A DNA stretch of 64,000 nucleotides, taken from NCBI RefSeq assembly GCF_032854445.1, contig NC_088302.1, forward strand, positions 9,667,338 to 9,731,337, written 5' to 3'. The notes under the pieces were generated by a model. It did no database searches, was not told where the DNA came from, and worked only from the letters and a program-made list of their open reading frames with translations. Below, in pieces: positions 2,925 through 61,863 of this stretch (position 1 is its first letter; each line of letters opens with the position of its first letter). This DNA comes from Liolophura sinensis (taxonomy: Eukaryota; Mollusca; Polyplacophora; Chitonida; Chitonidae). Position numbers and translations under genes: made by a program.

Positions 2925-3150
2925 TTGAGAATAGGAGGCTTTCATTGCCTAGTTCAAATTCCTAGTTCTGTGAGTTCAAATCCGGGTCATGCTGGCTTCC
3001 TCTCCGGTCTTATACGTATGAAGCTAGTAACCCTGTGTATGGTCGTGGCTCTGCCCAGTTTCCTCACACCATAATGCGGGCGCCGTCGTATAAGTCAAAT
3101 ATTCTTGACGGCGCAAAACAACAATCACATAAATAAATAAATAAATGTTG
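2925..3150 (+). mobile_element. tRNA-derived SINE, near full length, AAAT-tailed
   Basis: A Pol III B-box-like string (GAGTTCAAATCCGGGTC, about 2971-2987) is followed by the family body (CTCTCCGG, ATGGTCGTGG, CTCTGCCC) and then ACCATAATG, GCCGTCGTATAAGT, AATATTCTTGA and GCGCAAAACAACAATCA. It ends in repeated AAAT units at about 3131-3147. The order of head, body and short-repeat tail is that of a LINE-mobilised SINE. This is the only copy of the family in the window that keeps the head. Confidence 0.75.
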
Positions 3151-4378
3151 GACATCGTGTTTGTGTAAGAGATCGACTAATATTATGTAATTAGAGTTTA
3201 TATATCACAACACCTGATGTAGTTAAGCGCACAACGAACTTGTTCGCATTAATCAAAAACTCCGATTTGAGAAAACTCCTTGTCATACATGCAATGAAGG
3301 GATTCGTTTACATGTATCCATGTTATACAAAGTCCTCAATGGAGAAATGGACAGTGGCGATTCATCGTACACTGGTGCTGTTCGAATAACAGTTTACAGA
3401 GGTATTCATTTCTGTGTTGCGCTCCGTAAAAACTATTGACGGCTAAATTGATTGCAAGTTCCACGTGATTTGGTAGCACGGTAATTACAATTATCTGTTT
3501 GGACCAATCAATAGCAGTTCTAATGAATTTACTTGTGTGGAAATGGGTTACCGTTCCCTTAATTTGATCTCGTGCTTTCGCGTGGAAGTCTAATACGGAA
3601 GCGATTCTATAACCCTATACACTAGCTGTGTTACAACAGATCTATTTGGAGGCAATTGTTAAATTAGCTCTGGCAGTTTAACAAGACATTGGAGTTTCTT
3701 GGTTTTACTGTGTAACCAGTTTTACCTAACGAAGTGGAATGAAACATTCATTTCCAGTGATAAAATCACCTAGAAAATGCTAAACATTGATAGTTACCGT
3801 CTGTGATAATATTATGCGAGTCCGTGATTCTGTCACAATATAAGCGAATACACGCAATACATATATCTAAAATTGGTTCCTTTAGTGTTATCTGACATCA
3901 TCTTAAATTTTACTGTTAGATATATATGTTATAAAGTTTGAAGCACAACTGCTGATTTACGAACAAACATTGTTGCATTTTTGTACATTTTTGTACGTTT
4001 CTGTAAACGTTTCTGGAATGTTTATTTCTTTCCAGATCAGTGTGCGTGTGTTCTCTTTCAACGTGACCATACACATGAATTATCATTTTCTTCATCGTGA
4101 TTGTAATTGTCTTATATAAAGCTGTGATGGTTATGAGGTATCTTACCGCTGATGGTGTTGATGTCCTTGTCGTTGTTGCTTATGATGAAGATGATACGCT
4201 TTTATTTAGAAAATGCCATCTGCACTTATAAATCATTTCAAATAATTCATAATTCCACACATGCAGCATAAAATATTGATTTCCAGATTTTCAATTTCAC
4301 TGCAGGAGACATGCTGACATGCATAACACAGAATCTCATCACGATCAAGTCTGAAGCACTGAACTCGATTTAGTGGAG

Positions 4379-4432: not shown

Positions 4433-5535
4433 TGGCACGAAAGATGGCTGCTGCTGCGAGCGAGGTAAGGATTTTTAATATAACTATGTAATATACAATA
4501 TGGCATGCCATCAATGTGTGCGACTTTCCAACCAATCGAATTGATTAACTATTTTAACACGTCATGATTATAAAGTCTTGTAATTAGTGAGTGAGTTGGT
4601 ATCGTGAGGTCACATGTCGATGATCAACAAATATGCAAAATGGCGGAGGTCACCACAAATAGCTATTTCTGTCGGACCCTGAGAAAAGTTTACGTTTTAA
4701 TTAGTTTATGTACATAAATACTGAGTTATATGGTGAGTCATATCTGCGTGTTTTATCAATACCTCGGTGTGTGTGTGCAAACTGGACCTGTTATGGTCTA
4801 TTGCAATACGTACGGTAAGCGCTGCGCACACGCTGATACCAATGATGCTGCCACAGGTATGCATGGCGACGATCGAAATCTGATAGTCAGCGACACAGTC
4901 GTGAGGACGATGTGCCTGCATAACAGATCGATACAGGACTTAATTTTAATACATACCTCCACTCATATACAATGGATTGCATACCTGCGCTAACATTAAG
5001 ATCTCTCAATAGATGGATTTGGAGGGATAAATAGATGTTGTGTGTATTAACAGAAGGATTAGGTACTAGGGTTATACGCTTTAACGCACATGGCTGATTA
5101 AATCCTACTTCATACCGGGTGCGGTATTGTACAGCCTGGATGGTTACCATTTTTTTTCGCGTACCCATTCTTAGGCTGAACTTTGGGAAGATAACTTTTA
5201 GGCGCTTTCACTAAAGTTACAAGAACCCCTCATGGGCAGTTCTTGACACGCTTTAATACTGAATGCTTTGGCACCGGCTACACAATAATAGCTGGTTTAT
5301 GAAGACAAAGTGTGCACGGGTCCTGCGTCTCAATGGGAGACAGTCCAGGTACTTTGAACCTCACCTGGTCACACCTTTAATTAACAATAATGCAGAGTTC
5401 ACGGTATTTATATTTAGGGCTTTGACTAAGGATTGAAAGGACACAAGTCTTCAGCACTGTGGCACTGTGTTATCATTCTCATCAAGGTACCAGAACATAT
5501 GTAAATTGTCATCGCTGTTAGACTTCTATAGCAGT

Positions 5536-8500: not shown

Positions 8501-10414
8501 TAAGTCGAACCGACTCTAACAATGACAAAACTTCAATTCAGGACCGGACTTCACAGTCCGATGACAACACAATACTCTTTATTGACGAAGATAATATAGT
8601 TGAGATAACCGATGACAAGCCTATGGGAGCTCAAATTTCAAGCTCTGACAGGTATGCCAGTAACAGTCGCCATTGCCGCGAAGAAAACCTATTTAAATCT
8701 AGCCATGGGACTGTAGAGTCACGACGCGGTGTAAGCTCAAGGGACACAGCCGAATTGCCCGCAGGTGTAGACATTACAACCGGCTCGAGCGACCTGACAG
8801 GTCAGCCCTACAGCGGTGGAAATGTAAATAGAGAAAATAACACGACCTCTTCCGCCGGGTCTAGTCAGCCAAATATAACAGGCTTCAGTGGTCTAGAGAG
8901 AAAATCACAGCACTCTGGAGAGAAGCGGGTCAGCGGAGACGGAACTGACGTTAGGAGTCCCAGTCAAGACACCTCATGTGTAGGTGAAAAAAGCTCGCTT
9001 AGTACAAATGAAAGGCTTGACACTGTCTCAACAGCAGAGCGACCCGGGCCAACCACACAACTGCCGAGAAATAGTTCAGGCAGTGACTCACAACACCAGG
9101 ACGACGGAGCGTTAGACAGCATCGAGAACACAAGAGGTTTTTCTGATCGAGGGAGCATGTCGAACAACCAGATAAGCGAGAGACGAGGTGGAATTTATTA
9201 CAATGAGAACGTCTCCCGGAGAAATGTCACCGGTCTTCTCGCCTCCGATCAGGAGGATCGCAGGAGGGCTTTGGCCCTTTCGCAAACAGAGACTAGGCGC
9301 AGTGGTGAAATGCTTCAAACTAACGACCGATCTGAAGTGAGGCAAACACACGCAGGTCAGACCGCAACGAGGAGAGCGGCCGGAGTAGAAGTGTCTAAGG
9401 ACGGGGACAGAAGTCGATCGAGAGACGTAACGGACACCATAGACAGGAACCGTATAGACACCGAATACAGAACTGAGACCCCCAGCGGAGATGTCCAGGT
9501 ATCCAAGGTGAGAGAGGACAGACATACCCACAGCCACCAGGATAGACAATTACAGGCAGAAATAAAAAAGGACGGTAGGGAAGTCAGACAGTCCTCCTCA
9601 TCCAAATCCGAGTCGGCTCAAGTGTCACGTGTGACAGAGTCTGGCGATTCCAGAGTCTCACAGCGGCAGGAGAGACACTTCAAGAGTTCCAAGGTGACCA
9701 GGAGCAGCAGGACTTCCGGTTCCGGTTTCTCCAGAGACGGATCACTGCAAAAGGCCATTGGATTTGGATCTGACGACTCTGACGACGATTGGCCGCGCGG
9801 TGGACGAAGTCGTGACTTTGGAGACGGTTCGGCGGTGTCCACCGGTGGGGAAGTTGACCGGTACACCGGACGAGAGTCTGACTCCGATACTGAGCTAAAG
9901 GACGACGAACCTTACAGAGAAACCATTGTCCATGAGAACAAAGCGGCCGAAGTGTTGACCAATTCCGTGTCTCGAACCGACAGAGAAGGAACCATAACTC
10001 TTGCCGAGGAACGCCAGCGAGGACTGCTGGATCGTGGAGTGACTAGGAATATTTCTGAGAGTGGCAATATTTCCACCCAACGCGTGCTACAGCGCCAACA
10101 GGTTCAGTCCGCAAGGAGGACGGCATCGTCCAGCTACTCGCGGTCAAGTGGAAGTGGAGGTGGGGATTCTGGGACTGTGTCTGCCGAAGACGAAGCCGTG
10201 ATTCTTGCGGCATTGATAGGGAGACTCGAAGAGAAGGAGGTTGCCCCGTTCAGCGCCAGTGATCACCTGTCTCGACAGACCTCCACGATGGGATCGGAGA
10301 GTGGGGCCATTGTGCCTATGGTGAGGAATACGGAGGATGTAGAAGGGGAGGAAAATGCCCAGAGTGCGGAGGAGCAGTCCAGAGCAATCGCACGTGCCAA
10401 GCTTGAATTCCAAG
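5536..10414 (+). CDS. gene 1, coding exon 1: very long disordered N-terminal region of a RING/B-box protein
   Basis: One open exon of about 4.9 kb encodes residues 1-1626 of a predicted protein of about 1,963 residues. The start is the first in-frame ATG after the TGA at 5434, with A at -3 and G at +4. The 23 codons ahead of it are open, so a longer 5' part from another exon is not excluded. The sequence is rich in Ser, Arg, Asp, Thr and Gly, has no transmembrane segment or signal peptide, and looks intrinsically disordered. A W-containing motif of the type T-x-T-P-W-Y/H-H recurs near residues 458-465, 668-676, 824-830 and 976-981 (the last with Y for W), and DDWP occurs at residues 5-8 and 1417-1420. 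Near the end lies a short likely helix (EAVILAALIGRLEEKE) and then RAIARAK. The exon ends CAAG|gtaaga after one base of a codon. I do not recognise this region; its fusion to the RING exon rests on splice phase. Confidence 0.85.
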
Positions 10415-13400
10415 GTAAGAGGCGACATTTGTTATTAAACATAATACAACGTCAAACCAAAGCTTTCTAAAACGAGATAATACACTGTCAAATTAAAGCG
10501 TTCTAAAACGACAAAATACATGCTGTCAAACTGAGGCGTTCTATGAGGACACAGTGTGTCGTGTCTTTCGTGACAAATTCCAACTGGATAGATCTATATA
10601 GACAATATTCATTTATTCAGAACAAACTTCATTAGGGCACCACATTATACAGACTTTTAAGAGTTATACATATTTATACACAATGTCTTCGTATTCATGC
10701 CTAATATATTCCTGGTGAATATACATGTAGTGATGGGTTGAACAGTTTGTACGAAGACAGATCAATGCTAAAGCATTAGCATTAAACCCCTCTGGAGTTA
10801 AGACTACACTTCTTCCCTAGACTGAAATAGGACAATCTTTATTTGAGAACACCATACTTTAATTAAATACATATGATATGTGTAGTATGTCAAAGCACTG
10901 ACTAATAACAAAAAATAATATATTTCTAAAATTTGTGTAGGGGCATTTAGTATTATAATGATGTTAAAGTGTGTAAAAACGAATTATGCGCTGTAACCAA
11001 TGCACTGATAGTTGGTATTGTGTCTCACAAATATATCTGAACATATATCCTTATTCTATGTTGTCGCCATAAGATTCATACATTCAGCTCCATTAATTAA
11101 AGTTTCAAAAAGCCCATAGTTGTATAAGTAATTAAGTAAATTAAGGTGCAAGCAATGCTAATGTAGGAAATTTATTGTAAGGAAGAAGTGCACTGGTGTT
11201 TTTGCGAACAAACTATTCACATTAATGCATGTATCAAACATGGAAACGCCCAAGATCCGATCATTGAGGACATGTTTAGTAATTCCAGCGATAATTTGCC
11301 CAGGGGCACACAGCTTGAGTATATTCCACCCTAGGCAACATATGTATACAATAATTATAATTAACAGGACATGAACGACAAGCGGAAATAACTGTCACTA
11401 TTGGGAGAACAACAAAAAAAACACAGATCACGTTCTGATACAGAAAAATACAGTACTATCTGCTACATGTACGTTCATTATTTTATAAGTGATATATAAT
11501 TAATGTGAAGTGGGTTTGTCATAAAATCTGGATGGCCGTAGACACTGGTAAAACGATCCTGTATTTTCGCTGGCCTCCATTTATTGGTGTCGGAAATGAC
11601 ATCAATTCGATTTTTCGTGTAGGGGTGCACTTATGGAATAAGAAAAAGAAAATATTATGTTTTTGTAGTTATTAACTGAATTAAAATGCCAGTTATAGAT
11701 ACAGAAGGTATCTTGTGATGAAAAAGTCGAATAATAAAGGATAATCTTTCACTTTTTAAGTAAACAAAAGCCTATAACTGTGTGTTTCAAAGATTGAAAA
11801 AGCTGGTCCCAGGATCACGAAGCTGTGTTAGACCTATCAAACCTTGTTCTAACCTCAAAGCGATTTACCTTGCTAAAAATGGGACTTATCTTAGGAAGTT
11901 TTATTTTGATACTCAGAGTTGTCTTAGACTTTTATGACGAAATTGAAAATTAATCTTTAAGTTCAAGTATAAGTTCAGGAATAATACCACAAAGTAAGAT
12001 TAAGACTGACCTACGTGTAAGACAGCTTCTTGACCTTTGCTCAGAAGAAGTTCAAGTAAACTGCTACATCAGAAACAAGATTTTATGTACTTGACAGTAT
12101 TTTCTCAAAGGCTTATCATTTATTGGGATGGAGGGGACAAAACTGAAACTCGATAAGCGCACAGTCAACAAAGATGTTATCATATCACTTGTCACGACAA
12201 TTAATTACAGTGGATTGAAATGGTAAATACATAAAACTGAACTCCTGAAAACGACAGTAGAAACAAACAGTTTGCAGTACATGTAATTTGATAGCTCATG
12301 AATGCATCTACATAGTGAAGAGTATTTTATTAGCTAATCTGTCCAGCATTATGAAGAATTTTCATGAAGTTGTATCATATCAATATATACCCAAAACACT
12401 GTTGATTTTGTTTGTTGTTTTTGCAAAGTTGCTACTTGTGTATTTGAAACACAAGTCTCGAATTATAAACTTGCAATTGATCAGTATAGACGTGGAAAGG
12501 AAAGCACGCACACACTGCGTTATAGTTTACTAATATGGAGGAAACAATTTAAGAAATGAAATAAATTTATTTATCACGGTAAAGGCGTAAAACGTGAGTG
12601 AAACAACAAAAGACAAACAAATGTAGTACACGTGTCGTCATAACAACCACATGTTGAGGACAAATGTTGACACGTCTGTAGGCTAGAGTTTGATGACAGT
12701 ATAGTTACATGTACACTTTCGGAGTGAAATGATCGATATCTGTAAATTTCTGTAGTTGTTCTCTAACAAAATGCCACTCTGTGTTATTGTTTTTTTATAA
12801 AGTTTTCAGATTACACTTCGACAATATGCAGCGTTAAAGTTGGTTGAGTATCGGCATTCCACAAAATAGTAGGTGCACACAAATAATGCAATAGCGCAAT
12901 AAAATACACAACACTGATAGGCCAGCAGCATTACTGCACTCAAAAACACTTCACGTGCCCTGATGGGTACATCTATTTGTACGTCTATTTCTTTTACATG
13001 AGATATAAGCAAACCCTTTATACTAGAATGGGACTATCAATATGTACTTCCATATCATTGTAAACATTTATAAAATGTTTCATTCTTTTCACGATATAAA
13101 AAAAGTATTGAGGAAAAAAGTATTACAGGGTCTCATAAACCACAGACAGTGCGTATTTAGTACACAAATGGCCACGTTAATCACTGCAACAGGGATAAAT
13201 TAATGTTCAGATTTGCTACAGTGATTTGTAGACGGCCGTTTCCATGACTATGATACCTAGATAATGTCAATCACAATGAGGTTATATTTCCCCTCTGTCT
13301 ACCCTATTGTTCAGCTTCTAACATATGGAGCATCGATTTTTCTCCCGATTTTAGTATACATTGTCAACGAGATAGATATATTGGGTTCATTAACATTGAA

Positions 13401-13714
13401 GTGTCACTCAGTACTTGTGGGGGTTTAGCGTCGTGGTGTGGCTGCCAGATCACGTGATACATGGGCGGACTTTTTTTTTGTTGTTGTACGAAATGCTTCC
13501 TTGTCTATCTTTATTAAGTAATCCGTGTGGGTATTTTGCGATGATCATCATGTGAAGGCAACGTGAACAGTGTAAGTTATGGCGACTAAATGACGGGGTC
13601 AGCCTGACACGACAATTTAACACCCACACACCCTCAACATTACACAATGGAATAGACCATCCCTGTGGTGACAATGCTACATTGGGAAAAGCTGAAGCCA
13701 ATCCTGAATTATTA

Positions 13715-13799
<85 letters not shown>

Positions 13800-15449
13800 C
13801 GGGTGATATATGACACATATCGACTGTCAAAAGTCTTAACCACACACTGAGAACGGAAGTGGATCGTCAAATGCATTAGCTAAAGTGCAGAGAGAGGGTC
13901 AGAAGGGACAACAGCAACGGGATATACGCAGCTAAAAAGCCTTTTGTTATATAGCTGCATATGTTTACCACGATGTGTAATCATGTATTGTGGGTTGTTT
14001 AGCAAACAGTGGTAAATCTGGCGAGCAAGTGCTATATTATCAAGTCACAAGAAGATACAACCTTGTCCATAACCCATTCAAGTTTAGATTAATCACTACC
14101 CGCTTGGTTCGTTTCAATTCACACACAATTAGAAGACACTGCGTATAATTTCACGGTTATAAAAATAATAGAATCGTATGCAGAACAACTCTAAATGACA
14201 AATAATTCAAAATGCAACCTAAAAAAAAAAGAATACATAATGTAAAGTATTTAGCATTATAATTTGTCAACGTGTGAGTATCCGTGTCCTGTGTTTTGGG
14301 ATAATTCAACACAGAAAGGTCACAGTTTTGTGTTAAGTAGCAAAGGTTATGTGAAAATATAAAACAAAATTGGCTGTTTCATGTGACAGTAGGACACTGG
14401 TACATTGTCTGATGAGGTAACCTGATGCTTGTGTGTCACAGATATAGGATACGCATTTGCAAGGTACACAGCTTCTTTATAATCTTGTGTTGTATTGTTG
14501 CCTAAGACGGATGTTTTCCCAGGCGTGAAGGGATTCTTGTCTGTGGACTCTCCACAGAACTCATATCGACTGACAGTTGCAGACTTTTACTGTGCATATC
14601 AACTAACACAGAAATGTCTTTGTTGTTCTTTAAAGAGAGCTGGAGAGGAAAGGTTCTACTGAAGTATCGTTTTTTTCACAGCACGAGGCCTTCAGTGCCG
14701 GTCTGTTATTTACGTAGATTCAGTTTGGTGCATGCCTGAGATTTTACCTCCAACTGTTATGTGTAACTCGCTGTAACTGGGAGTTATTCAGCCATGAAAT
14801 AAATAATATAAATGGGTGAAAACTGGTGGTTTTCTTTGAAAACCAACTCTTTTAAGGTGATAGCTGGACCGCTTTACGCAGTAGATACTTATTCAAATCA
14901 CCGATAGGCAGGAGTTGCTGAAACTCCGCATGTAAAGGTAAAGGTAATACCCGATACGCTGGTATAGGCTGAGATATATAGGTATGTTGCACGTAAGATT
15001 GCATAATGATCTTAAATGGGAAGTAAATTATTTTGCATAGGTCTGAATATTGCTTGTGATTAGGCTTCGAGATTTACAGCTAATTAGGTTCTGTTAGAGG
15101 GCGTTGTTGTTGTTCTCTTTGCTGAGGATGATCTTCTTGACCGCGGCTGCAGTTTTGAAATGCGCATACGTCGAAGTGTTTTATGCTTCCTTGTACACGC
15201 TGGCTTTTCACCTGTCCACAAAATGAGATAGAGAGAGATATGAAAACGCCAACCATGTCCCAATATTTTTGTACACACCAAACAGGACATCGGTTTCATT
15301 CTGAAATTGATCCAGCCTTCGTATCGAGGAAACAAACATTCATCAAAGATTGAATCAAAGTTTTGATTAGGTTATTTCGCATTTTATGTCATTGCGACCT
15401 TAACATTTGTCTGTTTAACGATTAACGTTGTTTGTTTTGTCTACCTCAG
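10415..15449 (+). other. gene 1 intron (phase 1, 5,035 bp)
   Basis: The donor is CAAG|gtaaga at 10414/10415 and the acceptor is a pyrimidine-rich stretch ending ctacctcag at 15449. Joining the ends makes codon G|CT (Ala 1627) and keeps both reading frames. Apart from the CT/AT microsatellite at 13719-13795, I see no recognisable gene or repeat. The stretch at 11812-12070 begins like a dispersed repeat (GGTCCCAGGATCACGAAGC), but I could not define its ends. Confidence 0.85.
13719..13795. repeat. compound (CT)n(AT)n microsatellite
   Basis: An uninterrupted CT dinucleotide run passes directly into an AT run, inside the gene 1 intron. Its length is likely variable. The minus-strand frame of alternating residues over it is not a gene. 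Confidence 0.95.
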
Positions 15450-16462
15450 CTCGCCAGGCTAAAGTAAGACGCCCCGTGGCCCGTAAGAGGACGATCATCG
15501 TGGACGAAGAAATGATGGAAGAGATGTTCCTGAGATGCATTATCTGCCGAGATCGCTACGATACCGACGAGAAAACGCCCAAGCTTCTACCGTGCCATCA
15601 CACGTTTTGTCTGGAATGTCTGAAGGAAATGTTCCGTGTGGAATCGGAGCATAGGCAGACGCTGACCACGGCATACCGTGACAATGCCCCCAGCTTCGTT
15701 ACCATCCACTGCCCTACATGCCGAGCCTCTCACATGATTACAGATAAGGACTTTAAGAGTTACAAATCAGACCACAAGCTTCTGGAACTGCTTGAGATTT
15801 CAGCCTGTCCCAGCAAAGGTAGTCTTGGTTACTGTAAAAGTCATAAAACCCAAATCACTGACCATTTCTGTGAGACTTGTCTCCAGGCTGTCTGCAGCGA
15901 TTGCAAAGTGTTGGACCATCGTGAACAAGATGGTCACGTGGTACACTCACGCGCTGAGGCGTTGAGGATCTACGCCAATCAGGCGTTGATCACGTGCTGT
16001 AATGCCGACAGCGAAGACCGGAAGCTGGCAGATATGGAGCGAAATCTGTCAGGCGCCTTAGATGTCATCAACACAAAACTGTCCAACGCTGAGGAAAAGA
16101 TCAGGCAGACGTTCGACAAGTTCAAGGTGGCCATCAACAACAGGCAAGATCAACTGCTGGAAAAGATCGAGACGGAAATGGGGAACCGGAGAGAGGAATT
16201 TTCAAACGATTTGTCTGAGATCACGAAACGCATGGAGACAATTGAGAAGACGCAGACCACCACGAAACAAGCCCAAGAGGACGAAGACGTCGAGCAGATG
16301 TTCACAGCTCACCAGAATGCGCGCGAGATGTTCAAGAACACCTTCGAACCAATCAAACATCCTAAATCAAATATTAAATCGTCATTTCATTACGATAAGC
16401 GTGACCGCGCAAACATCATGAACACGGTGTCGGACCACGGCATGATTACATTCATGAGCTAA
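15450..16462 (+). CDS. gene 1, coding exon 2: RING finger, B-box and coiled coil (TRIM-like E3 ligase module)
   Basis: This last coding exon encodes residues 1627-1963 and stops with TAA at 16460-16462. A C3HC4 RING finger is complete: C1656, C1659, C1675, H1677, C1680, C1683, C1714 and C1717. A B-box follows: C1755, H1758, C1767, C1770, C1775, C1778, H1783 and H1789. Residues of about 1790-1920 are charged and heptad-like, as in the coiled coil of TRIM proteins. There is no SPRY, NHL or filamin domain, so it is a short TRIM-like module. RING/B-box/coiled-coil proteins typically act as ubiquitin E3 ligases and oligomerise through the coil. TRIM proteins normally start with the RING; here it sits after about 1,650 other residues. 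The paralogue at 50699-51750 matches along the whole length. I infer ligase activity from intact zinc ligands only. Confidence 0.93.
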
Positions 16463-43182: not shown

Positions 43183-44680
43183 GTATGCTTACCACCCAAG
43201 TATGATTATTTGGTAGTCTTGGCGTGAAAACGTGAGGGTACAGAATATGAATATGAACACGACGGTCTGAACATAACGGATTTGTGTATAAACATGACGC
43301 TCCTGATGTCTGAACATGGACTGTTTGGTGTATAAACACCACGATCTGACGCCTGAACAGAACGGTTTGATGTATGAACACGACGGTCTTACGTCCGAAC
43401 ATGACGGTTTGGTGTATGAACACGACGTCTGAACATAACGGTTTGTTATGTATGAACACGAAGGTCTGACATCTGAACATGACGGTTTGGTGTATAAACA
43501 TGAAGGTTTGGCGTCTAAACATGAGGTTTGGTGTATGAACACGACGGTCTGAACATAATCGTTTTGTGTATGAACACGACGGTCTGACGTCTGAGCATGG
43601 CGGTTTGGTGTATGGACACGAGGGTCTGAACATAACGGTTTTGTATACGAACACGACGATGTGACGTCTGAACCTGACGGCTTGGTATGAACACGACGAT
43701 GTGACGTCTGAACCTGACGGCTTGGTGTATGAACACGACGGTCTGACGTCAGAACATGACGGTTTGGTGCATGAACAGGTAGTCTGACATCTGAACATGA
43801 CGGTTTGATGTATGAATGCTTACCACCCAAGTATGATTATTTGGTAGTCTCGGCGTGAAAACGTGAGGGTACAGTATATGAATATGAACACGACGGTCAG
43901 AACATGACGGTTTGGTGTATTAACACGGACGGTCTGACGTCTGAACATGACCGTTTGGGTGTATAAACACGACGATCTGACGCCTGAACAGGACGGTTTG
44001 GTGTATGAACACGACGATCTAAACATGACGGTTTGGTGTATTAACACGACGGTTTGACGTCCGAACATGACGGTTTGGTGTATGAACACGACGGTCTGAA
44101 CATAAAGGGTTTAAGTATGAACACGGACGGCCTGACATCTGAACATAATGGTTTTATGTATAAACATGACGGTCTGACGTCTGAACATGACGTTTGGTGT
44201 TTGAACACGACGGTCTGAACATAATCGTTTTGTGTATGAACAAGACGGTCTGACGTCTTGAACATGACGGTTGGTGTATGACACGAGGGTCTGAACATAA
44301 CCGTTTTGTGTATGAACACGAACGGTCTGACGGCTTGGTGTATGAAACACGACGGTTCTGACATCAGAACAGGACGGTTTAGTACATGAACAGGGTAGTC
44401 TGAGATCTGAACAAGACGGCTTGGTGTATGAACACGACGGTCTGACATCTGAACACGAAGGTCTGAGGTCTGAACATGACGGCTTTGTGTTTGAACACGA
44501 CGGTCTGAACATGACGGTCTGACGTCAGAACATGACAGTTTGGTGCATGAACACGACGGTCTGAACATGACGGTCTGACGTCTGAACATGACGGTTTGGT
44601 GTATGAACACGACGGTCCTGACGTCTGAACATGACGGTTTAGTGCATGAACACGACAGTCTGACGTCTGAACGTGACCTG
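43183..44680. repeat. 42-bp minisatellite with a 631-bp higher-order duplication
   Basis: The repeat unit is about 42 bp: TGAACACGACGGTCTGACG, then TCTGAACATGACGG and TTTGGTGTA, with deletions and half-units throughout. A non-repeat leader (GCTTACCACCCAAGTATGAT, TTGGCGTGAAAACGTGAGGG) occurs at 43187 and again at 43818, so a block of leader plus repeats is duplicated 631 bp apart. As 42 is a multiple of 3, the minus strand has several overlapping open frames of 120-224 codons encoding repeats such as HQTVMFRRQTVVFI. I regard these as non-coding by-products. Confidence 0.93.
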
Positions 44681-45448
44681 TCTTACGTACTTCCATAACA
44701 ACGTGGCATCTTAAGTTTAAAGCTCGTATCCCATTACTAAAATAAAGCAAATATTATGAACGAGAAAGAATGAAACTTACGTAGCAAAGTTTTTATGTAT
44801 CTCTCATTTAATTCAACATCGTTTCATTAAATCTCCCCGCAAACAAAGTAGAGGTATAAATATATACACGTGAGGCAGACACTGAGCATATGTGAGGTGA
44901 ATATCCGTTCAGCAGTCTCTTCCACGCAATATTCCCTGACTGGAAATAGTGCAGATCAAACTGAATATATCACTATCATGTGACAGTAATTTGACATCCG
45001 GATGTCATGGTCACTTATAAGCGCAGACGTGTTCTCTATTGCATACAGAAGCTGTGATACGTTCAACCTTGTGCAAGGCAAATACTGTACAACTGTGCAG
45101 TGCAATTCAATGAGTAAGCCCAATATTATCATATATGCATTAAGATATGTTTTAACGTGTTGGCAATTAATGTAAATGAACAAAAAACAATGTTTATGCG
45201 CCTATCGATATGGAATACGTTAACCTGTTAAAAGGACGGACCCGCCATATTAATGTCCATTGTTACAACCCCTGTAGTGTTGACTTGCTCGTCTCAAATG
45301 TTCCGTGCTCCTCACACACATCATGACCTTTCCCTATCCTTACCTCATTACCCCATATCCGCTCGACAACTGAATGGGAAACGCGTAGGCAGGTGTAGCT
45401 CTAGTCGATTATTTGTTTAAACTCACTCATCTAGTGTGGTACTTTTAT

Positions 45449-45487: not shown

Positions 45488-45699
45488 AACTTTATACAAA
45501 ATCCTTTAGCACAAGGGTCTAATTTAACATAAATTGGTTGAAGTGAGGAAAAAAAATATGTACTGAAATTTTCTTTCAGGGGCTTCACTTTGCTAACTTT
45601 TAAAATTTTACATTTATATTCAATGAAGGCAGTTAATTATTTAACACTTCATTATATTAATAGTGAAATGTGTGATTTTGTTTACTGCTACATTATCAG

Positions 45700-45778
45700 C
45701 ACAATGCTGGTCGAGGTCATATAAGTAAAATATTCTTGAGTGCGGCTTAAAACAACAATTAAATAAATAAATAAAACC
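45700..45778 (+). repeat. AAAT-tailed SINE, 3' fragment
   Basis: ACAATGCTGGTCGAGGTCAT, then ATAAGTAAAATATTCTTGAG and TTAAAACAACAATTAAAT, ending in AAAT units. The 5' part is missing. Confidence 0.75.
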
Positions 45779-46172
45779 GGGTTAGTCACATCAGTGTGAT
45801 TATTACTTTTCATTGCAAAAACAGACTGAAATTTTCATTTATCAAGTTTTTATGCATATTTATTGTTGGTCACCTCAGAAGAATATTTTCATATATACTA
45901 CCGCCATAAGGTTTATGTGGGAGATAACCGAATTATTATAAACAGAAATAGATAGGAATAGCCTGTTTTATACTCATTACTCTAATATGACGTTAATAGC
46001 TTTGACACAGACTGAGTGCGAGAATGTGGGTGCATTACATTACAAATGTATCAAGCGTGTTAATCAGGTGCCTATATCTTGTATAATGTATTCGTCTTAG
46101 TCATCATACAATATTGCATAACATATTAAATAAAAACTTTAATTAAATTTTACTTTTCTTTTATTTTATCAG

Positions 46173-47052
46173 TTCTCTGTGACAAAAGAAAATCCTACTG
46201 CCTAGATGATATAAACAGCGACAAATTATTCAAAATGTCTACTCAGATTGAAACGTTTCGCATGCTGCAAGATGTTCAAGACGTACATAACTGGCTGTTT
46301 GACAGAAACAGGAGTCTAGGTGCTTGGAAATGATGACACCGGCAGAGTTAAGTCCATTATTGGCGGCGTTTTTCGCGGAAGCCAAGAAATCCGACGGCTC
46401 GGACTACGATGTGTGTGGAGCATTTAGTGCTTTTGCGAAACAGCATAGATACTTATCTCCAGAGGCGGCACTACAGCACTACACTTTCGGATCCTGCGTT
46501 TGAAGGCACACAGGCGGCACTTGAAGCACGTGGCGGCGGAAAGAGACCTGAAATAGATTTGAAACGACTTTCTGTTGAGGACGAAGAAGCGATGTGGGCG
46601 AAGAAGTATTTTGGTAATCATGACGGCGAGGCTCTGAACTGTACCCTGCTGTATTATTTTACAAAATTCTTTGATTTAAAAACTAAAAACGAGCACAAAG
46701 AGTTATGTTTTTGGAGATGTAGTTTTGCGGTCCGGAGAAGGCAACATCCGGTTTCTAGAATTTGATCCTCGCCTAAACACGTGGGACGAATGAGGAAGGT
46801 TCAAACCAGCGAGCTTCTGCGCTGACGCTCAAACTACAAGACACATTGAACCTAAACTGGTTTTTTCCAAGGTGGCCCGCCAGAAAGGGATCCCGTCCTA
46901 CTTTCGAGTCCCTCATTCAACACAGACCTTTCCGAACGCGCCCGGCCGCACTCGCCTATGTACTTACAACCTGTGCTGATTCAGTCTAGCTCAGCGCGGG
47001 AGTGGTTCGAGGAGAAACAGCTCAATACAAAATCCCTCAACCGTATTGTCAG
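46173..47052 (+). pseudogene. gene 2, 5' part: degraded Crypton-type tyrosine-recombinase domain (DUF3504/ZMYM-like)
   Basis: A pyrimidine-rich acceptor ends at 46172 (ttttatcag). The sequence then codes in pieces: a first piece ending LFDRNRSLGAWK (TGA at 46331); MTPAELSPLLAAFF with KKSDGSDYD (from 46333, shifted frame); NSIDTYLQRR and DPAFEGTQAALEARG; LSVEDEEAMWAKKYFG; FFDLKTKNEHKELCF (to 46711); GDVVLRSGEGNIRFLEF (shifted again, TGA near 46789); and PMYLQPV with REWFEEKQLNTKSLNRIV (from about 46870). The order matches the core-binding and catalytic parts of Crypton-derived domains in ZMYM2, QRICH1 and KIAA1958. The FDLKTKNEH segment has K where active recombinases have Arg, and the final His/Tyr part is missing, so no recombinase activity is expected. 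At least three or four frame changes break it. It may be a decayed fused domain, a decayed transposon beside the gene, or an exon set I have misread. Confidence 0.75.
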
Positions 47053-48253
47053 GTGTATATCTCGAGGCGGTAAAGTCAGTCACAAGCGAACGGAAGACTG
47101 TCAAAGTTCAGTGACAGAGGCCGAGCCGCCATTGGCAGACGAGGACGAGAACGAGGCTGCGCGAGAGCCTGAAATAGTTACGGTTGAGGACGGAGGACAG
47201 GTTTCGGCTCACGAAGAACACGTTCACTCGGATGAGGTTAACGGTACTGAAAACGATTTTGGATACGACGACGAAGTAAATTCAATCATGAATTCGAACA
47301 CCGGGACCCTCGTTCCCGCTGATGGGAGAAGTACGGACCTACAAAACCTATCACCAGGCAGTAGACTGGAGTTTACAGGTAACTTCGGGCAGGACTCGCG
47401 GGACTACGGCAGAGGTAGAGACTACAGCTCGGCCAGAGCTCCGGCTCCGATCTACCCTTCAGCCTGCTGGATGTATTACGTGACGATCTGACCACGCTTC
47501 GCGCCCCAAGTGATTCAGGTAGAACCTTGTCACCTCTCCTTCATACACCCCACCCAATGGACACGGGACTCGGTACCCTGGGGCCGGGAATAGCCCCCAG
47601 ATCCTACGGCCAGGAGCCCTTTAACTCTCGTCTCAGCGGTCGATCGCGGTTACAGGGGCGACTTCAGGCTATCCGGAACGGCCCCCCGGAGCCTCGGTCA
47701 GCCCGAGACAGCTGGCGGTACCGCGGAGGGGCTGAGGACATTAGGACCTCTCGCGCCATGATGGCGTATCAGCCCCGCTCTGTACGCTGGTCCTCACAGG
47801 AGGACCTCTACAGCGACCCGTACGAGGGACGAATGAGTCCCCGACCCGCCTTAGGGTACGGGCGGGATGGACCGGATCGTTACTCCCCAGACTCAGTGAG
47901 CAGGAGGGATGATTACGTACACAATACCCAGAGGCGAATAGATGAGGCGATTGCCCGACGGGAGCGACCAAGTCGTCTCAGGCCGGATCGCATTGGTGGC
48001 AGACGCTACCAAACACAACCTATAGACTTTAACTACTCTTCTTACACGAGCCAGGATCGTTACGGGACGAACTCTGACATTTCCGCTCCGTCCACGATGT
48101 CTTATGCCAGACAGGCTCGCCAGAGGGCTGAAGAGAGAGAGGCAGTTGCCCTACAGCCGACCAAAAGTGTGTCCCCACCCCCAAACCGCCCGACCACATC
48201 TAACAACGAAGAGGGAGGAGAGACAGAGAATATGGAAACAGAGCAGCAGAAAG
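47053..48253 (+). CDS. gene 2, upstream exon: acidic then Arg/Ser/Tyr-rich disordered region
   Basis: The frame of the Crypton piece continues to a TGA at 47489-47491 with an acidic stretch (ADEDENEAAREPE and similar). A second frame, open from 47419, runs through SLLDVLRDDLTTLRAP into a Pro, Arg, Ser and Tyr-rich stretch and ends QQK at 48253, where AAAG|gtgagt is a strong phase-1 donor. The two frames differ by one base. The switch lies between 47419 and 47490, or is bypassed by a possible 410-bp intron (47053-47462), because GTCAG|gtgtat and acccttcag| are phase-2 compatible. The start of gene 2 is unresolved; ATG codons at 46235 and 47560 are candidates. The Arg/Ser/Tyr-rich composition is similar in kind to gene 1, without clear alignment. 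Confidence 0.7.
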
Positions 48254-50698
48254 GTGAGTGGATTTAACGTGTAACACTATGAAATTGTCAATGACCTTTT
48301 CATTTGAACTGAAAATATGTCAATTTGTAAGCAAATAACGATGACAAAAATATTAGATAATATCTAGTAATACATATAACTTGAGATTAAGATGGTCCGT
48401 CTATATCTTAATCCCAGATGTATCTAGATTTGGCTATTATGAGGGTACTCCAAGTACCGAAGGTTAAAATGCTTTTTCCAACCAGAATTTTATGATATAA
48501 ACACTGTGTGCTTTGTCTAAGAATTGGCAATTTAAACGTAGGTTGTTGTGTGCCAACATTTCATAACGTGACATTAACATGCAGTGTAATAAGAGCATAC
48601 TGTGACAGTGTTTTTAGCAATATATGAATTACAATCATTGTGCCCCAGGATATGACAATTGCCCAAGGGTTGACTTAGAAACCCTAACATTGTATGTCAT
48701 AAAACTCTGTCACTTTTGATATTAATATCAAGCGCTACATATGATACTACTGCAATATTTACACGAAAGGACGTGTTGTTACATTTTGGTCTCTTCAACC
48801 CTTCTCTGCCCCTCCCCTTAGATTAAGATAGTAATACTTGAACGCTATAAACATATATCTGCCATGCCTGAATTCTAAAGCAACATTGTGTGTGTTAAAG
48901 TTGAATATCCAGTTTACTCTCTGTGATAATGAACAAGGCCGTCTGTAATTTTAACAGTTATCTATTTTGTATGATTATAATTTCACTAGAACCGCGTGAC
49001 GTGCGTTTGGGATCTTTCACCTCTGGTCACCCCAGCAATACCCTTAACATTCCGGCCCAATGTGAGACCAATTTCAAATTATCAGCACCGTGACCTAAAT
49101 TGATCAAGTTTGATTATCGACTCGAATCAAAAATAGAATCTTCCGGAGATCTGAACTGTCGATGCTGCATTACTAATACAACAGGTTTAGTCACATCGGT
49201 TTGACATCCATGTGAAAATATGGTCACAAAGGCAGCTGTTGCTAATATAGCTGTTAAGGGACTTTCGTTTCGCTTGAGTAGTTCAGTTTATTTTTTGAAA
49301 CCAACAACTGAGACGTGTGTGTACAGCTGATCGAGCAAGATTTAGCTTGTCCTTGACTGGATTCATTAGGTGGAAATAGACCTGGGCCAAGAAAGTTTTA
49401 CTTGTATCTAGCCACTAAGTGCTTCTTGCACACTTTTTCATAGTTCAGTGACTCGATGGCATGAACGATTACAGCCAAGTACATAAGTGGCCGGAAGAAA
49501 AAACTATATGATGGCTATTAGCATACTAGTCTATAAGTCAAACAATGGCTAAATCAAATATTCAACAGGTCATGTTGAGTGTCATTTGTGCACTTTCAGA
49601 CGTGTGGATGTTTCGCTTTCCAAGAAATACTAAAATTACAAGGAAACCAGACCGACGTGCATATCTGGAAAACAATAAAAGAGCGTATTTGGTTTGGCCG
49701 CATGAAACAGTGTTCATCAAGTCATAATTTAGTTCAAAATAAAGTTGTTCTGAAGTTAGTGTTGTATTTGAAGCGTGTAAGCTTGAAACTTAAAAGATCT
49801 TGTATATGATATTGGCCTGTTGTATATAATGGTATATGCATACCCATGTTTGTAAGTCAACAGCATATAATTCCCTGGGCTAGGTTTTAAATATCACCCC
49901 TGTTCACTTGACTCCTGGGTACCCAGGCTACGTAAGTTACCTAGACGCTTATGAAATACACGCAGGACAGGTGAAAGCCAGTTTGAAACTTTTTTCAAGT
50001 GTATACTTGTGATGTTGCTTTGACGATTGTATGACTCATGCACTGGTCTCAGCCTGCAGTTATTCAAACCTTACAAAAACTCACGCATTTTTGCCTTATT
50101 TTCCGCATTTACGGCCTTAAACTGAGACGACTTCTGGGGCTAAGACTCTATATTAGGCTTTCTCGTCTCCTGCTCTATGTGCGTGTTACCAATGTTAACC
50201 TTTCACGTAGAGAGCCGAGACAAACCACTGCTAATTTAAACAAGCCCAGAACTGCAATGCATCCTCTCAAAATGTCAGAAGGGAGAGAATCCCGTAGGAG
50301 TGTCGTAGGTTTGTTTGACCTCCTGCTCAAGGGCTCTTTGTCACATCGCCACAGTTTTATTTGTTAATGACGGTCGAGAGCAAACTTCATCACTAGTGTA
50401 CAACTTTTACAAGAATATGTGTTTTCCAGCCATAAAACGATCTGAAACAGTAAAGTACAGACAAGATGATATTATTTGCAGTATACCTTGTTGGTATTGG
50501 TGTTCGGCGAGAGTAGATGTTTGTTTCATGTAAATTTAGATGTGAAAACGCAAATAATGAAGTGCATGTCAAAAAGCAAGAACTGTAAACATCATACAGT
50601 AGAGTAATTCAACCCATGTGGAATTCCAAAGACGCCATTGGTTTATTAAGGTGTTGTTATAATTCATTACATTTACCACTTCCTTGTTTCCCTTTCAG
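48254..50698 (+). other. gene 2 intron (phase 1, 2,445 bp)
   Basis: The donor AAAG|gtgagt and the acceptor tccttgtttccctttcag| join one base G with AA to give Glu and continue in the RING frame. The intron occupies the same place relative to the RING as in gene 1. No repeat or gene recognised inside; the 109-codon frame at 50038-50367 has no motif. Confidence 0.85.
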
Positions 50699-51750
50699 AA
50701 CAGAGAAAAGCAATCCGAGCCAAGATGATGGCGGGGCAGGTACCCCAGGCACCCAAGAGTCCCGCTGCCAAGAAGAAACTTATCCTGGACGAAACAAAAC
50801 TGGAAGAAATGTTCTTGAAGTGTCTGATCTGTGGAGATATTTTCAACAATACAGACCGATCACCAAAGTTACTACCATGCCATCACACGTTTTGTCTGGC
50901 TTGTCTTCTGGAAATGTTTCGGGTGGAGATTGAGCAGCGACAAGCCATGGTAAGCGTCTACCACAACCGCCTGCCCTCCGCCGTCAGAATTGGATGTCCA
51001 ACGTGCCGAGATTCCAGAATAATTTCCCAAGAAGAACTAAAGAAAATGCCGAACGATCGCACTGTCCTGTCTTTATTAGACCTTGTCTTTCATTCGGAAT
51101 CTTGTGTGGTGAATTATTGCTCCAGGCATCAAACACAGCCACTGAACTTCTTCTGTGAGACGTGCATTCAGCCCGTGTGCTGCGATTGTACCGTTCTGGA
51201 TCACATGCAATCTGACAACCACGTGGTCATGAATATAGAGGGCGCTCTACAAAAATACAAGCCACTGATCGAAGAGTGCTTATCGAAATTAGCAAGTCAC
51301 GCTTCAGAATTAATGGAGTCGAAAACAATCTTGGAAGGTGCTATCCATACTTTGGATACCAACCGTACAGAAGTTATTAATAAACTAAAGGAGACATTCC
51401 AGCAATTCCGCACAGCTGCTGATGATCGCGAAGAAGAACTCGCAGAAATATCACTTCGAGAAATTGGGCGAAAAAAGGATGACCTGACTAAGTGTCTGGA
51501 ATTGGTGCAGAAGCGACGAGAGCAGATTAAAACGACGAAAGATGTTCTTAAAAATGCACAAGATGACGAAAACGTGGAACAGGTATACACTACCCATAAA
51601 AAGCTGAAAGAAATCCTTGCAGACCAAGTGACAATCCCTGACAAGCTCCAAGGAGAGTTTTCAGCAACTCTTGACTTCGATGATACTGAACAGACAAATG
51701 TGATATTCAAGTTGTCTGAATTTGGAGAAGTTTTATTCGAACACTCGTAG
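50699..51750 (+). CDS. gene 2, last coding exon: RING finger, B-box and coiled coil
   Basis: The exon encodes about 350 residues, beginning EQRKAIRAKMMAG, and stops with TAG at 51748-51750. The RING starts at exon residues C42 and C45 (CLIC), continues with LPCHHTFCLAC and closes with CPTC. The B-box reads CSRHQTQPLNFFCETC, then CCDC, DH and H. A long charged coiled coil follows, with no SPRY or NHL domain. It aligns end to end with the gene 1 exon: shared EEMFL-C, SPKLLPCHHTFCL/TPKLLPCHHTFCL, EMFRVE, FCETC, VLDH, DDENVEQ/DEDVEQ and a similar C-terminus. This exon has no frame break although the upstream exon does. An internal ATG at 50725 could start a short stand-alone RING protein if the upstream exon is dead. 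Confidence 0.93.
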
Positions 51751-56675: not shown

Positions 56676-56938
56676 TGCCACAGATGCTTTATAGACAGCT
56701 CGACACAAACGATTCCGTATAGAAAACTGGGGAGCGGTAAGTTGCATCCACAATTTAATATTGCACAAAATTTAATTAGAAAATCAAAATATAACAAATC
56801 AGAATAATGAGACAGCAATAGAAATATGGGAACTCACGGAATACGGAAAGATGTAGTGAATTAATACGATGATGTAGTAATAATGATGCGTATTGTTTTA
56901 AAGGAGTTATTCTGCGATGCCATGTGCCGAAGGAAAGG

Positions 56939-57060
56939 AATACCATGTAGGTATTGTAACAAATACCATGTAGGTGTCGTAAAAAATACCATGTACGTGT
57001 GGTAACAAATACCATGTAGGTGTCGTAACAAACACCAAGTACGTGTCGTAACAAATACCA
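56939..57060. repeat. 23-bp minisatellite, left part
   Basis: Units of AACAAATACCATGTAGGTGTCGT, with variants AAGTACGTG. The array is interrupted at 57061 by a SINE and resumes at 57209. Confidence 0.9.
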
Positions 57061-57208
57061 TTACGTGGGAAGGTCTGCCAGCAACCTGCGGATGGTCGTG
57101 GGTTTCCGCCGGGCTCTGCCCGGTTTCCACCCACCATAATGCTGGCCGCCGTCGTATAAGTGAAATATTCTTGAGTACGGCGTAAAACACCAATCAAAAA
57201 AAAAAAAA
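57061..57208 (+). mobile_element. 5'-truncated AAAT-family SINE inserted in the 23-bp minisatellite
   Basis: It contains TTACGTGGGAAGGTCTGCCA, ATGGTCGTGGGTTTCC, GGCTCTGCCCGGTTTCC, CACCATAATGCTGGCC, GCCGTCGTATAAGTGAAATA and GTAAAACACCAATC, and ends in an A run. TAACAAATACCA stands on both sides (57049-57060 and 57209-57220), as expected for a target-site duplication, although the host repeat itself also contains this string. Confidence 0.88.
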
Positions 57209-57266
57209 TAACAAATACCAAGTACGTGTCGTAACAAATACCATCTACGTGTCGTAACAAATACTG
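57209..57266. repeat. 23-bp minisatellite, right part
   Basis: Continues the array after the SINE: TAACAAATACCAAGTACGTG, then two further units. Confidence 0.88.
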
Positions 57267-58487: not shown

Positions 58488-58770
58488 TTAAGCCACGGTG
58501 CTAGTGGTTGTGTAAGCTGCTACTGTTTAAACATTTACTTAAACAGAATAAAACCGGAACTGGTCGTGGGTTCCCCCGGGCTCTCCCCGGTTTCCACCCA
58601 CCATAATGCTGGCCACCGTCGCATAAGTGAAATATTCTTGAGTACGGCGTAAAACACCAATCAAATAAATAAATAAATAAATAAACCGGAAGTTAGCTAA
58701 ACTGACAAGAGACCGTCTTTCGCCGATTACGTGTGACCATTTGCCAACTATCAGTGTTCTCCATTCAAGA
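58488..58770 (-). repeat. R1 copy split by a SINE
   Basis: The left piece (58488-58559) has GCTTAAGCCACGGTGCTAG and TTAAACAGAATAAAACC. The right piece (58692-58770) has GACAAGAGACCGTC, TTCGCCGATTACGTGTGACC and ATTTGCCAACTATCA. The SINE at 58560-58682 sits between them and the pieces rejoin in family order. Confidence 0.82.
58560..58682 (+). mobile_element. 5'-truncated AAAT-family SINE with target-site duplication
   Basis: It contains TGGTCGTGGGTTCCCCCGGG, TCTCCCCGGTTTCCACCC, ACCATAATGCTGGCCACCG, GCATAAGTGAAATATTCTTG and GTAAAACACCAATCAAAT, then AAAT repeats. AAACCGGAA occurs directly before it (58551-58559) and directly after it (58683-58691). Confidence 0.92.
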
Positions 58771-59004
58771 TAGTTTTTTCTTCTGTATTAGTTTAGTTTT
58801 GTTTTCTTCCTTTTAAAATAATCCAAACAACAATGCGAGGGATCAGGCGTCAGGGGTGTTTTGTACAGCAGCAGATGCATATATAAACATGTAGAGCGAT
58901 TTCTGCAACGTGCACATAACAACACGCATCCAATATTACAGCAGGTATACATGTTCAAGTATATTATTGAAACAAAACATGAAAAATCAACATTCATCAT
59001 ATTT

Positions 59005-59932: not shown

Positions 59933-61259
59933 ACCGATGTAGCAACGTTCTCCATTTGGGATATGTCAGTGTTTACAATGATGATCATCTCCAAAAGCTT
60001 GAAGGTAAAGCTGATATATAAAAATGAAGTAAGCTTCAGTAGAAAGATTGCTGGAAATTGCGTGCAAAAATACGCATGCTTATTTTATTATTTATTCTTT
60101 ATATTTATTTATTTATTACTCATAATATTTTCTGTTGGGTTTTATGGGCCACGTTCATAATGCATGTCTCCTGAACATAAAAAAATTTTTAAAATGTTGT
60201 GTGACGTCACTAACGACATACGGTGCAATATGGTGCATAAAGCCCAATTTACAAACCACAGATTTGAGTGTATTTCATTCAGAGAAAAAAATTCTAAAAA
60301 ATGTAAATGTATTGTCAGATACAGCTCTATGAATCTATTGAACGATGCTTTCTCCATTTTTAATTTTTTCTCTAGCTTTAAAATAGTTCTCGGTTTTAAC
60401 TATTAACTATTAAAGATAATTTTCTTGTCGTTTGTGGAAACGCAATTCTAAAATATCTGATTATAAGAAATTGGGACATACGAGATAACTCTATAGAGGC
60501 TGGACACAGACATAAAAGATATCCAAACTCCAAAATGGTTCAGGACTTCCTGTCGGAAAAATATCTGGGATGGGACAAGATTTCTTCAAATAAGTGCTCC
60601 ACTGGTACATTCAGGAACAGCGAAATATACCTATACGTTCAAGTGAGGCACGCAAGTTCATCTCGCAAAATTTGATGAATGAACGATTATAGTTACACAC
60701 TATGATGCTTTTACCTATCTCTTCTCTGGTTAATAACTGTGATGATTACAATCGCTTTTTGGTCTTTTCAGTGTCTAAAATAATACTGCAGATGTGATAC
60801 AGAATTGAAGAAAAAGATAACAGCTGAAGGTGTGGTTTTGATTGCACCTACCTTTCATCCGTGAATTCCCAGTAAATGGTGCTGTGCGTCGTCTCTAGGG
60901 GCGATAAAAAATCAAAAATACAGTTCCAGAAGCATTGGGATTTTTTTGTTTTGAGATGTGAGCTATTATAACTGTATTGGCCGAGTACTGGTAGCATAAA
61001 TAATCTTATACAAAAGGAAAGAACAGAACATCAAAAACAAAAAAAAAAAGAAACGTTACTGTAGATAATTACATTCATTTTATCCGATGTATACATGCAA
61101 TTGTGGATCTTGATAAGATATAATGCGTGCTCGAGTCGTTTTTACAAGCTTGGGAACATATCAGAACAACGTGGAAACTACAACGTGATAAAAGACTCGC
61201 CGCGCTTATATCTCGAATCAGATAGAAAGCAGAAAAGTGGATCCTCGACATAATACAAA
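59933..61259. other. 5' flank of gene 3
   Basis: AT-rich with TTTA runs near 60100-60120 and an A-rich run near 61035-61052. No gene recognised. The promoter of gene 3 should lie in the right part, but I see no specific element. Confidence 0.5.
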
Positions 61260-61863
61260 ATGGCACACGAAGAAAGATGGCAAAAGTACTGTCAGAGATC
61301 TCACCCTGTTACTTTGGCAGACAAAAAATTGATTATTGTTGAAGTTGAGGATTTCGTGAACAACCCAAGTAGCCAACGCTCTCGAGTCAGGAACTTTAAG
61401 GTTGTTCAAGTTTCAACAGAGGGTTCTGATAGAAGCCAATCGAATAAGAATGGAAAAGGCAAGAAAGGATCGGATATTGAAAGTGGAATGTTTTCTGACA
61501 ATGTCCGTTGCCTGATTTCACAAATCCGTGACCAGGTTCGCTACATCCAGAGTCAGGGAGCAACAGCGAATTCGTCCCTTGATTGCCATGGTGACACCGT
61601 CACCAGGAACGCGTTTCTGGTTGGTCGCGCTTGTAAGGAGGATGTCGATGAAAACGAGGCTCCCGCTTACACGACAAGAAGTAGTTTACACTCATCATCT
61701 CCATACAATAAGCCGTCACCTGTCTGCCCTGGGCCAGGTGAGATGGCTGCGAATAACTCTGACAGCCCATTTTTTAGGTTCTCCCCGAGAAGCAGCAGTT
61801 TTAACTGTGGTCGGGACATCTTCGGGAGGCCGAGCAGAACCACAAGTTCGAGGCACGCTGAAG
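61260..61863 (+). CDS. gene 3, first coding exon: unrecognised protein with phase-1 donor
   Basis: The ATG at 61260 has A at -3 and G at +4 and opens a frame of 201 codons plus one base, to GAAG|gtaagg at 61863. The peptide begins MAHEERWQKYCQRSHPVTLA and has a fairly ordered first part (KLIIVEVEDFVNNP; NVRCLISQIRDQVRYIQ). It then turns Ser, Pro and Arg-rich (SSLHSSSPYNKPSP; FRFSPRSSSFNCGRDIFGRP). I recognise no domain. Without splicing the frame would stop at 61886. The donor phase equals that of genes 1 and 2 and the strand is the same, so this may be a third N-terminal exon of the family, with the RING exon beyond 64000 or lost. A candidate short second exon lies at 62404. Membership in the family is inference; the exon itself is well supported by start context, codon-like composition and donor. 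Confidence 0.65.

What the first reader, a model, noticed from the sequence alone, without database searches (positions are those of the whole stretch)
46173..51750. Crypton tyrosine-recombinase domain directly upstream of a RING/B-box exon on the same strand
Successive pieces in three frames match the order of a Crypton/DUF3504 domain (MTPAEL-LAAFF, NSIDTYLQRR, LSVEDEEAMW, FFDLKTKNEHKEL, GDVVLRSGEG, PMYLQPV). They run without a gap into the exon that splices to the gene 2 RING exon. Domestication of Crypton domains is known in ZMYM2, QRICH1 and KIAA1958, but I know of none joined to a TRIM module. It could be a fusion gene caught during decay or domestication, or a dead transposon that landed in the exon.
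Basis: partly seen in the sequence, partly recalled or inferred. Interest (0 to 1): 0.75.

Follow-up and report, generated by a model that had tools for sequence, protein, structure and literature searches.

The report
Broken recombinase domain before TRIM gene
In a chiton genome, the start of a ubiquitin-ligase-like gene carries a nearly complete but broken copy of a domain that animals have repeatedly borrowed from a jumping gene; it may be the remains of a fused protein, though no transcript could be checked.

Summary
Window 46571-47059 matches Pfam DUF3504 (PF12012) over almost its whole length when frames are read through (57.8 bits, E 4.7e-13). The window comes from the Liolophura chiton assembly. 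I count four frame changes and one in-frame TGA in the domain. It lacks the catalytic last third of a Crypton recombinase, has Lys in the first catalytic Arg column, and no other DNA match was found in the genome. So it looks more like catalytically dead host DUF3504 genes than like the multi-copy Cryptons here. Its last piece runs in frame into a coding-like acidic stretch (to ~47437). One more frame change leads to an open disordered stretch whose donor (48253) joins in phase to an intact RING/B-box exon (50699-51750). Of four tandem paralogues only this one shows the domain, as far as searched. Best reading, at even odds: a KCTD1b-like DUF3504-TRIM fusion whose recombinase half decayed while the TRIM half was kept, perhaps from ATG 47557. 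Main rival: a separate dying DUF3504 gene lying against the TRIM gene. Transcripts and other chiton genomes would decide.

The parts
46173..48253 (+). Probable exon that holds the broken DUF3504 domain, an acidic stretch and a disordered R/S-rich stretch
   Evidence: Best acceptor-like site of the region before 46173 and donor AAG|GTGAGT after 48253; no transcript evidence
46235..47100 (+). DUF3504 (Crypton recombinase-derived) domain with its N-terminal part, in frame order 2-1-2-0-2; about four frame changes (near 46331, 46429, 46703, 46848-46885) and a TGA at 46791
   Evidence: positions of the frame changes are approximate
46571..47059 (+). PF12012 match
   Evidence: 57.8 bits, E 4.7e-13
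47102..47437 (+). Acidic coding-like stretch in the same frame as the last DUF3504 piece
   Evidence: Codon score 10.3 against shuffle mean -2.7, 0 of 500 as high; change of frame placed at 47435-47437
47438..48253 (+). Disordered R/S-rich coding-like stretch, open, in the frame of the RING exon; first in-frame ATG at 47557
   Evidence: Codon score 2.1 against shuffle mean -3.0, 0 of 500 as high
48254..50698 (+). Intron, phase 1
50699..51750 (+). RING and B-box exon with its stop codon, intact
   Evidence: zf-RING_UBOX 30.9 bits and zf-B_box 28.8 bits, both above cut-off; Zn-ligand patterns complete

Best explanation
Gene 2 belongs to a tandem cluster of four TRIM-like genes. A catalytically dead, recombinase-derived DUF3504 domain became joined, in a single exon, to the 5' end of its disordered region, so that the ancestral protein was DUF3504 - acidic linker - disordered region - RING/B-box, the plan of vertebrate KCTD1 isoform b with another partner. 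In the intact form the DUF3504 part would have bound DNA or a protein partner and the RING part would have ubiquitinated what was held (inferred from the families). Later the DUF3504 half was broken by several frame changes and a stop, while the 3' half stayed intact; it may still be made from a downstream start (ATG 47557, 582 aa), with the broken domain as leader or skipped. Shown: the domain, its breaks, the open 3' half, the splice-site phases, and no DUF3504 at the paralogues as far as searched. Inferred: the former single protein, the downstream start, the function.
For: DUF3504 match over profile 3-160 of 162. Its last piece lies in an open frame of 211 aa that runs through the acidic stretch; 0 of 1000 shuffles had so long a frame. 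A codon model trained without gene 2 gives one coding path from 46883 to 48258 with a single shift at 47435. Donor 48253 and acceptor 50699 keep the frame, in the same phase as gene 1 and the downstream paralogue. The six breaks fall in 1203 bases 5' of 47438 and none in the 1865 coding bases 3' of it: 0.0036 if spread evenly. The domain is host-like: ends at model position 218 of 270, Lys in the first Arg column, long isolated branch, no second DNA match. No DUF3504 was found elsewhere in the window or in 9.9 kb upstream of the two outer paralogues, nor near them in the genome list. A published precedent exists: KCTD1b.
Against: No transcript was seen. Codon usage of the DUF3504 stretch alone is not above shuffles (51 of 500 as high), and the coding path starts only at 46883. 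The acidic and R/S stretches show no similarity to gene 1's disordered exon (238 and 383 of 500 shuffles as high). A start of the TRIM exon at the acceptor-like site before 47463 costs only 2.7 bits. With only the four breaks that I judge safest the even-spread probability is 0.024, and I placed the breaks myself. Two copies in the multi-copy part of the tree (L023, L026) also lack the catalytic box, and the isolated gene L001 keeps the Arg, so these marks are not exclusive to host genes.
Confidence: 0.5

Rival explanations
1. Two neighbours that were never one protein: a separate, dying DUF3504 gene (46173 to its own stop ending at 47491) abuts or overlaps the 5' exon of the TRIM gene, which starts at about 47463 or uses the older exon as leader.
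For: The frame that holds the last DUF3504 piece has a natural end at 47491. An acceptor-like site precedes 47463 and a frame switch there costs only 2.7 bits. The paralogues show no DUF3504.
Against: The coding signals of the two frames abut at about 47437 without a gap; the acceptor before 46173 is the best of the region; no upstream coding exon for a TRIM gene starting at 47463 stands out between genes 1 and 2.
Confidence: 0.3
2. A dead Crypton transposon, cut short at its 3' end, that landed in the intron or 5' exon of gene 2 and was never translated with it.
For: Cryptons with catalytic boxes are present in this genome; the domain is frame-broken as dead copies are (one search lists stops inside many of its 59 matches).
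Against: No other DNA match in the genome, best protein relative 25-28% identical, while copies of the multi-copy groups sit on short branches; catalytic third absent; coding-like continuation in frame. No convincing flanking repeat was seen, but animal Cryptons lack terminal repeats, so this is weak.
Confidence: 0.12
3. A working fusion gene: the breaks are assembly errors, or the assembly shows a broken allele of an otherwise intact gene.
For: Coverage is 14x and heterozygosity 1.24%. Two of the five frame changes lie next to runs of 5-6 equal bases (46708, 46861).
Against: HiFi reads; neighbouring long frames of 1677, 347, 366, 354 and 415 aa have no break; three frame changes are not at such runs, and one break is an in-frame TGA.
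Confidence: 0.06

Closest known systems
KCTD1 isoform b, vertebrates (Kojima and Jurka 2011, PMC3212892; section on KCTD1 read)
   Same: DUF3504 inside a single exon, N-terminal to an unrelated host domain; the paralogue (KCTD15) lacks it; the host part also exists without it.
   Different: Partner is BTB/POZ, not RING/B-box; KCTD1b is intact and conserved, while here the domain is broken.
ZMYM2/3/4, QRICH1, WOC and KIAA1958 (PMC3212892, abstract and section 10)
   Same: DUF3504 in a longer host protein with the catalytic tetrad mostly lost.
   Different: No RING/B-box partner is described there (0 occurrences of RING finger, TRIM, B-box or ubiquitin in that paper); those genes are intact.
Crypton-derived sequence in the ATF7IP gene of amniotes (PMC3212892, section 9)
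   Same: Recombinase sequence inside a host gene, intact in one species and frameshifted or partial in others.
   Different: There it is intronic and some copies have an intact recombinase frame; here it appears exonic and lacks the catalytic third.

Membership tests
DUF3504 (PF12012) | Profile match over the curated cut-off of 29.7 bits | tested here: met
   57.8 bits, 42.8 bits for one frame, 55.4 bits on the composite
Active Crypton transposon | Catalytic tetrad R-H-R-Y | tested here: not met
   Lys in the first Arg column; the H..R box and Tyr region are absent; no Phage_integrase match, whereas the ORF of L002 has one at 28.4 bits; the ORF of L021, which stops before the box, has none either
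Active Crypton transposon | Other copies in the genome | tested here: not met
   Only itself found by DNA; this search skips very common words, and protein search finds one match at 28%
Domesticated DUF3504 gene (KCTD1b type) | Catalytic residues lost, domain joined to a host domain | tested here: inconclusive
   Loss met; joining supported by frame and exon evidence but broken by frame changes and not seen in a transcript
Domesticated DUF3504 gene (KCTD1b type) | Conservation among species | not testable with these tools
   No other chiton genome is held
TRIM / RBCC protein | RING and B-box | tested here: met
   Above Pfam cut-offs, ligand patterns complete
TRIM / RBCC protein | Coiled coil after the B-box | tested here: inconclusive
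   No Pfam coiled-coil match for gene 2; gene 1 has TRIM_CC at 15.3 bits, below the cut-off of 30

The most novel reading that the evidence does not exclude
In other chitons, or on other haplotypes, the intact gene makes a DUF3504-TRIM protein: a ubiquitin ligase steered by a recombinase-derived DNA- or protein-binding domain. It would be a further independent Crypton domestication, joined to a TRIM module, with this animal caught after losing the steering half but keeping the ligase half.
Probability: 0.3. Interest if true: 0.65.

Novelty: new variant of a known kind. Interest (0 to 1): 0.45.

Why it matters
Kojima and Jurka count four likely independent domestications of animal Cryptons, all very old, and in 2011 knew of no reported function of the domain (PMC3212892). 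A DUF3504 joined to a ligase module would suggest that the domain works as a targeting part. Its loss in one chiton with the TRIM part kept would allow a before-and-after comparison among close relatives. If the rival is right, it is an ordinary pseudogene next to a TRIM-like gene.

Tried and rejected
Chance match: rejected. Introns as the cause of the frame changes: no GT[AG]AG donor between 46172 and 47896. Recent transposon copy: the DNA search finds only itself. Target-site or terminal repeats: only short two-copy repeats, none convincing at the domain's edges. Similarity of the acidic or R/S stretch to gene 1's disordered exon or the exon at 61254: none beyond shuffles (238, 306, 383 and 133 of 500 as high), so a first BLASTP E of 0.042 was dropped. 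Placement among DUF3504 lineages: unresolved. Upstream coding exons between genes 1 and 2: none stands out by codon score apart from tandem repeats at 43.3-44.6 kb. My first profile had taken up an interspersed repeat at its end and was rebuilt from trimmed sequence; the searches failed on an option and were rerun. Literature: no title or abstract on DUF3504 joined to RING or TRIM in the listings (open-access library; one search listed 20 of 6,302 papers, one search listed 20 of 173, one search listed 12 of 12). DUF3504 places (59) against B-box places (119; both lists are lower bounds) compared by eye: outside this cluster no same-strand pair within 50 kb; two pairs on contig C2 lie about 19 and 32 kb apart on opposite strands.

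Full report
Source. The window lies at G000:C8:9667338-9731337 of a 609,464,459-base assembly in 632 contigs. The paper on the chiton Liolophura reports 632 scaffolds, a longest scaffold of 96,433,062, and others of 60,359,117, 58,388,612, 37,343,639 and 25,057,479 (passages). These equal contigs C1, C7, C8, C9 and C4. The total (609,495,693) and one scaffold (82,493,220 against 82,489,547 for C6) differ slightly, so the copy held is this assembly (GCA_032854445.1) or a near version. It was made from 14x HiFi reads. A correction renames the species L. sinensis (whole text).

The observation. PF12012 matches 46571-47059 with 57.8 bits, E 4.7e-13, with 3 TGA and 1 TAA inside. The frame 46352-46762 alone gives 42.8 bits, and a read-through composite gives 55.4 bits, E 1e-14, profile 3-160 of 162. 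Upstream, 46333-46428 resembles the part that precedes DUF3504 in relatives: 10.0 bits, E 7.3e-5 in a search of three frames with a profile of four ORFs, and a Pfam QRICH1 match of 13.5 bits, E 0.079, below the cut-off of 30.8. The order of frames is 2-1-2-0-2, with changes near 46331, 46429, 46703 and 46848-46885 and a TGA in frame 0 at 46791. The frame-0 piece and the last piece are weak alone (-1.2 and 3.3 bits); their place rests on the full-length match.

What kind of domain. The genome list holds 59 DUF3504 matches (150 of 167 candidates scored). I read 20 loci with 25 of the other 58. Copies such as L002, L004 and L022 keep the box TNHSVRKT and a Tyr, and the L002 ORF also hits Phage_integrase at 28.4 bits. 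The window domain ends at model position 218 of 270, before this box. In the first catalytic Arg column it has Lys, as do L029 and L030; 15 of the other rows have Arg, L021 has Leu, L019 has His and two rows have a gap. L029 and L030 have DUF3504 at 44.3 and 36.2 bits, and L030 a QRICH1 domain at 56.3 bits. Against a clean division: L001, which I take for a host gene, keeps Arg, and L023 and L026 also lack the box. In the tree of 20 rows the window's end branch is 1.95; the other rows over 1.5 are L030, L029 and L001/L033, the rest are 0.72 or less, and the position of the window row is unsupported. Its best identity is 25% over 204 columns or 28% by BLAST. Its DNA found only itself. Kojima and Jurka report that host DUF3504 domains lack most of the catalytic tetrad (PMC3212892, abstract and section 10). 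So the domain looks host-type; a truncated transposon without other copies is not excluded.

What follows it. The last domain piece lies in an open frame of 211 aa (46856-47488); 0 of 1000 first-order Markov shuffles had so long a frame. The stretch 47100-47430 scores 10.3 on codon usage trained on the TRIM paralogues, against a shuffle mean of -2.7 (0 of 500 as high). The stretch 47450-48253 scores 2.1 against -3.0 (0 of 500). The DUF3504 stretch scores -1.5 against -3.4 (51 of 500), which is no evidence by itself. In 557 windows of the flanking sequence the best-frame score had a 95% point of 2.5 and a maximum of 9.9. The acidic stretch exceeds or nearly reaches this maximum in three windows (9.8, 14.3, 13.2), while R/S windows range from -5.5 to 8.3 (all). 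With gene 2 left out of training, a model that allows shifts gives one coding path from 46883 to 48258 with one shift at 47435; it does not call the first 650 bases coding. Placing the switch at 47463, after an acceptor-like site, costs 2.7 bits.

The TRIM part. Donor 48253 and acceptor 50699 join in phase 1 and keep the frame. Gene 1 (10414/15450) and the downstream paralogue have an acceptor in the same phase; my scan gave none for the upstream paralogue. RING and B-box of gene 2 are intact. Four stop-free RING/B-box exons stand in line on C8 from 9,658,729 to 9,762,581; the other three are 45, 37 and 35% identical to gene 2. A profile search of the whole window and of 9.9 kb upstream of the two outer paralogues shows no second DUF3504; its other hits above threshold match only an interspersed repeat that had entered that profile. 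The genome list has no DUF3504 near them.

Two fates in one gene. By my count six breaks fall in the 1203 bases 46235-47437 and none in the 1865 coding bases after it. Spread evenly this has probability 0.0036, or 0.024 if only the four breaks from 46703 on are counted. So the 3' half has probably stayed under selection after the 5' half was released. The first in-frame ATG is at 47557 and gives 582 aa; that it is used is inference.

Mechanism and precedent. KCTD1 isoform b joins an N-terminal, single-exon DUF3504 to a BTB/POZ domain; the authors infer that a Crypton inserted upstream after KCTD1 and KCTD15 had split. Gene 2 has the same plan with a RING/B-box partner. DNA binding or protein contact is what those authors propose for DUF3504. 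Joining this to a ligase would direct ubiquitination: inference, for a protein that this assembly no longer encodes.

Limits. No transcripts and no other chiton genome could be searched. The acidic stretch shows no significant similarity to gene 1's exon, so it may have come with the DUF3504 part. The former single protein is the best reading at about even odds, not a result.

Noticed in passing
G000:C8:9658729-9762581; window genes at 5437-16462 and 46173-51750: Tandem cluster of four stop-free RING/B-box exons on one strand; a fifth relative with 2 TAA lies at C8:35483913-35484974.
   Followed up: partly
61254-61863: Coding-like disordered open frame with a phase-1 donor (GAAG|GTAAGG); it may be the 5' exon of the next RING/B-box gene about 32 kb downstream, unproven.
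   Followed up: partly
56910-57266 (-), 58542-58787 (-), 937-1206 (+), 45691-45834 (-), 3027-3176 (-): An interspersed repeat that reads like RRTQEYFTYTTAASIMVGGN in one frame; it also forms the tail of the Crypton ORF in L002 and occurs in L016.
   Followed up: no
43228-44695: Array of short repeats reading SEHDGLVYEHDGL in several frames.
   Followed up: no
L030 (C11:24675000-24679500): Open frame of 966 aa with QRICH1 (56.3 bits) and DUF3504 (36.2 bits) domains, a likely host DUF3504 gene of this chiton.
   Followed up: partly
L002, L003, L004, L022, L023, L027; L020, L021, L024, L031, L032: Two well-supported groups of Crypton-like copies (6 and 5 rows of the tree), several keeping the catalytic box; the L002 ORF also hits Phage_integrase.
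   Followed up: partly
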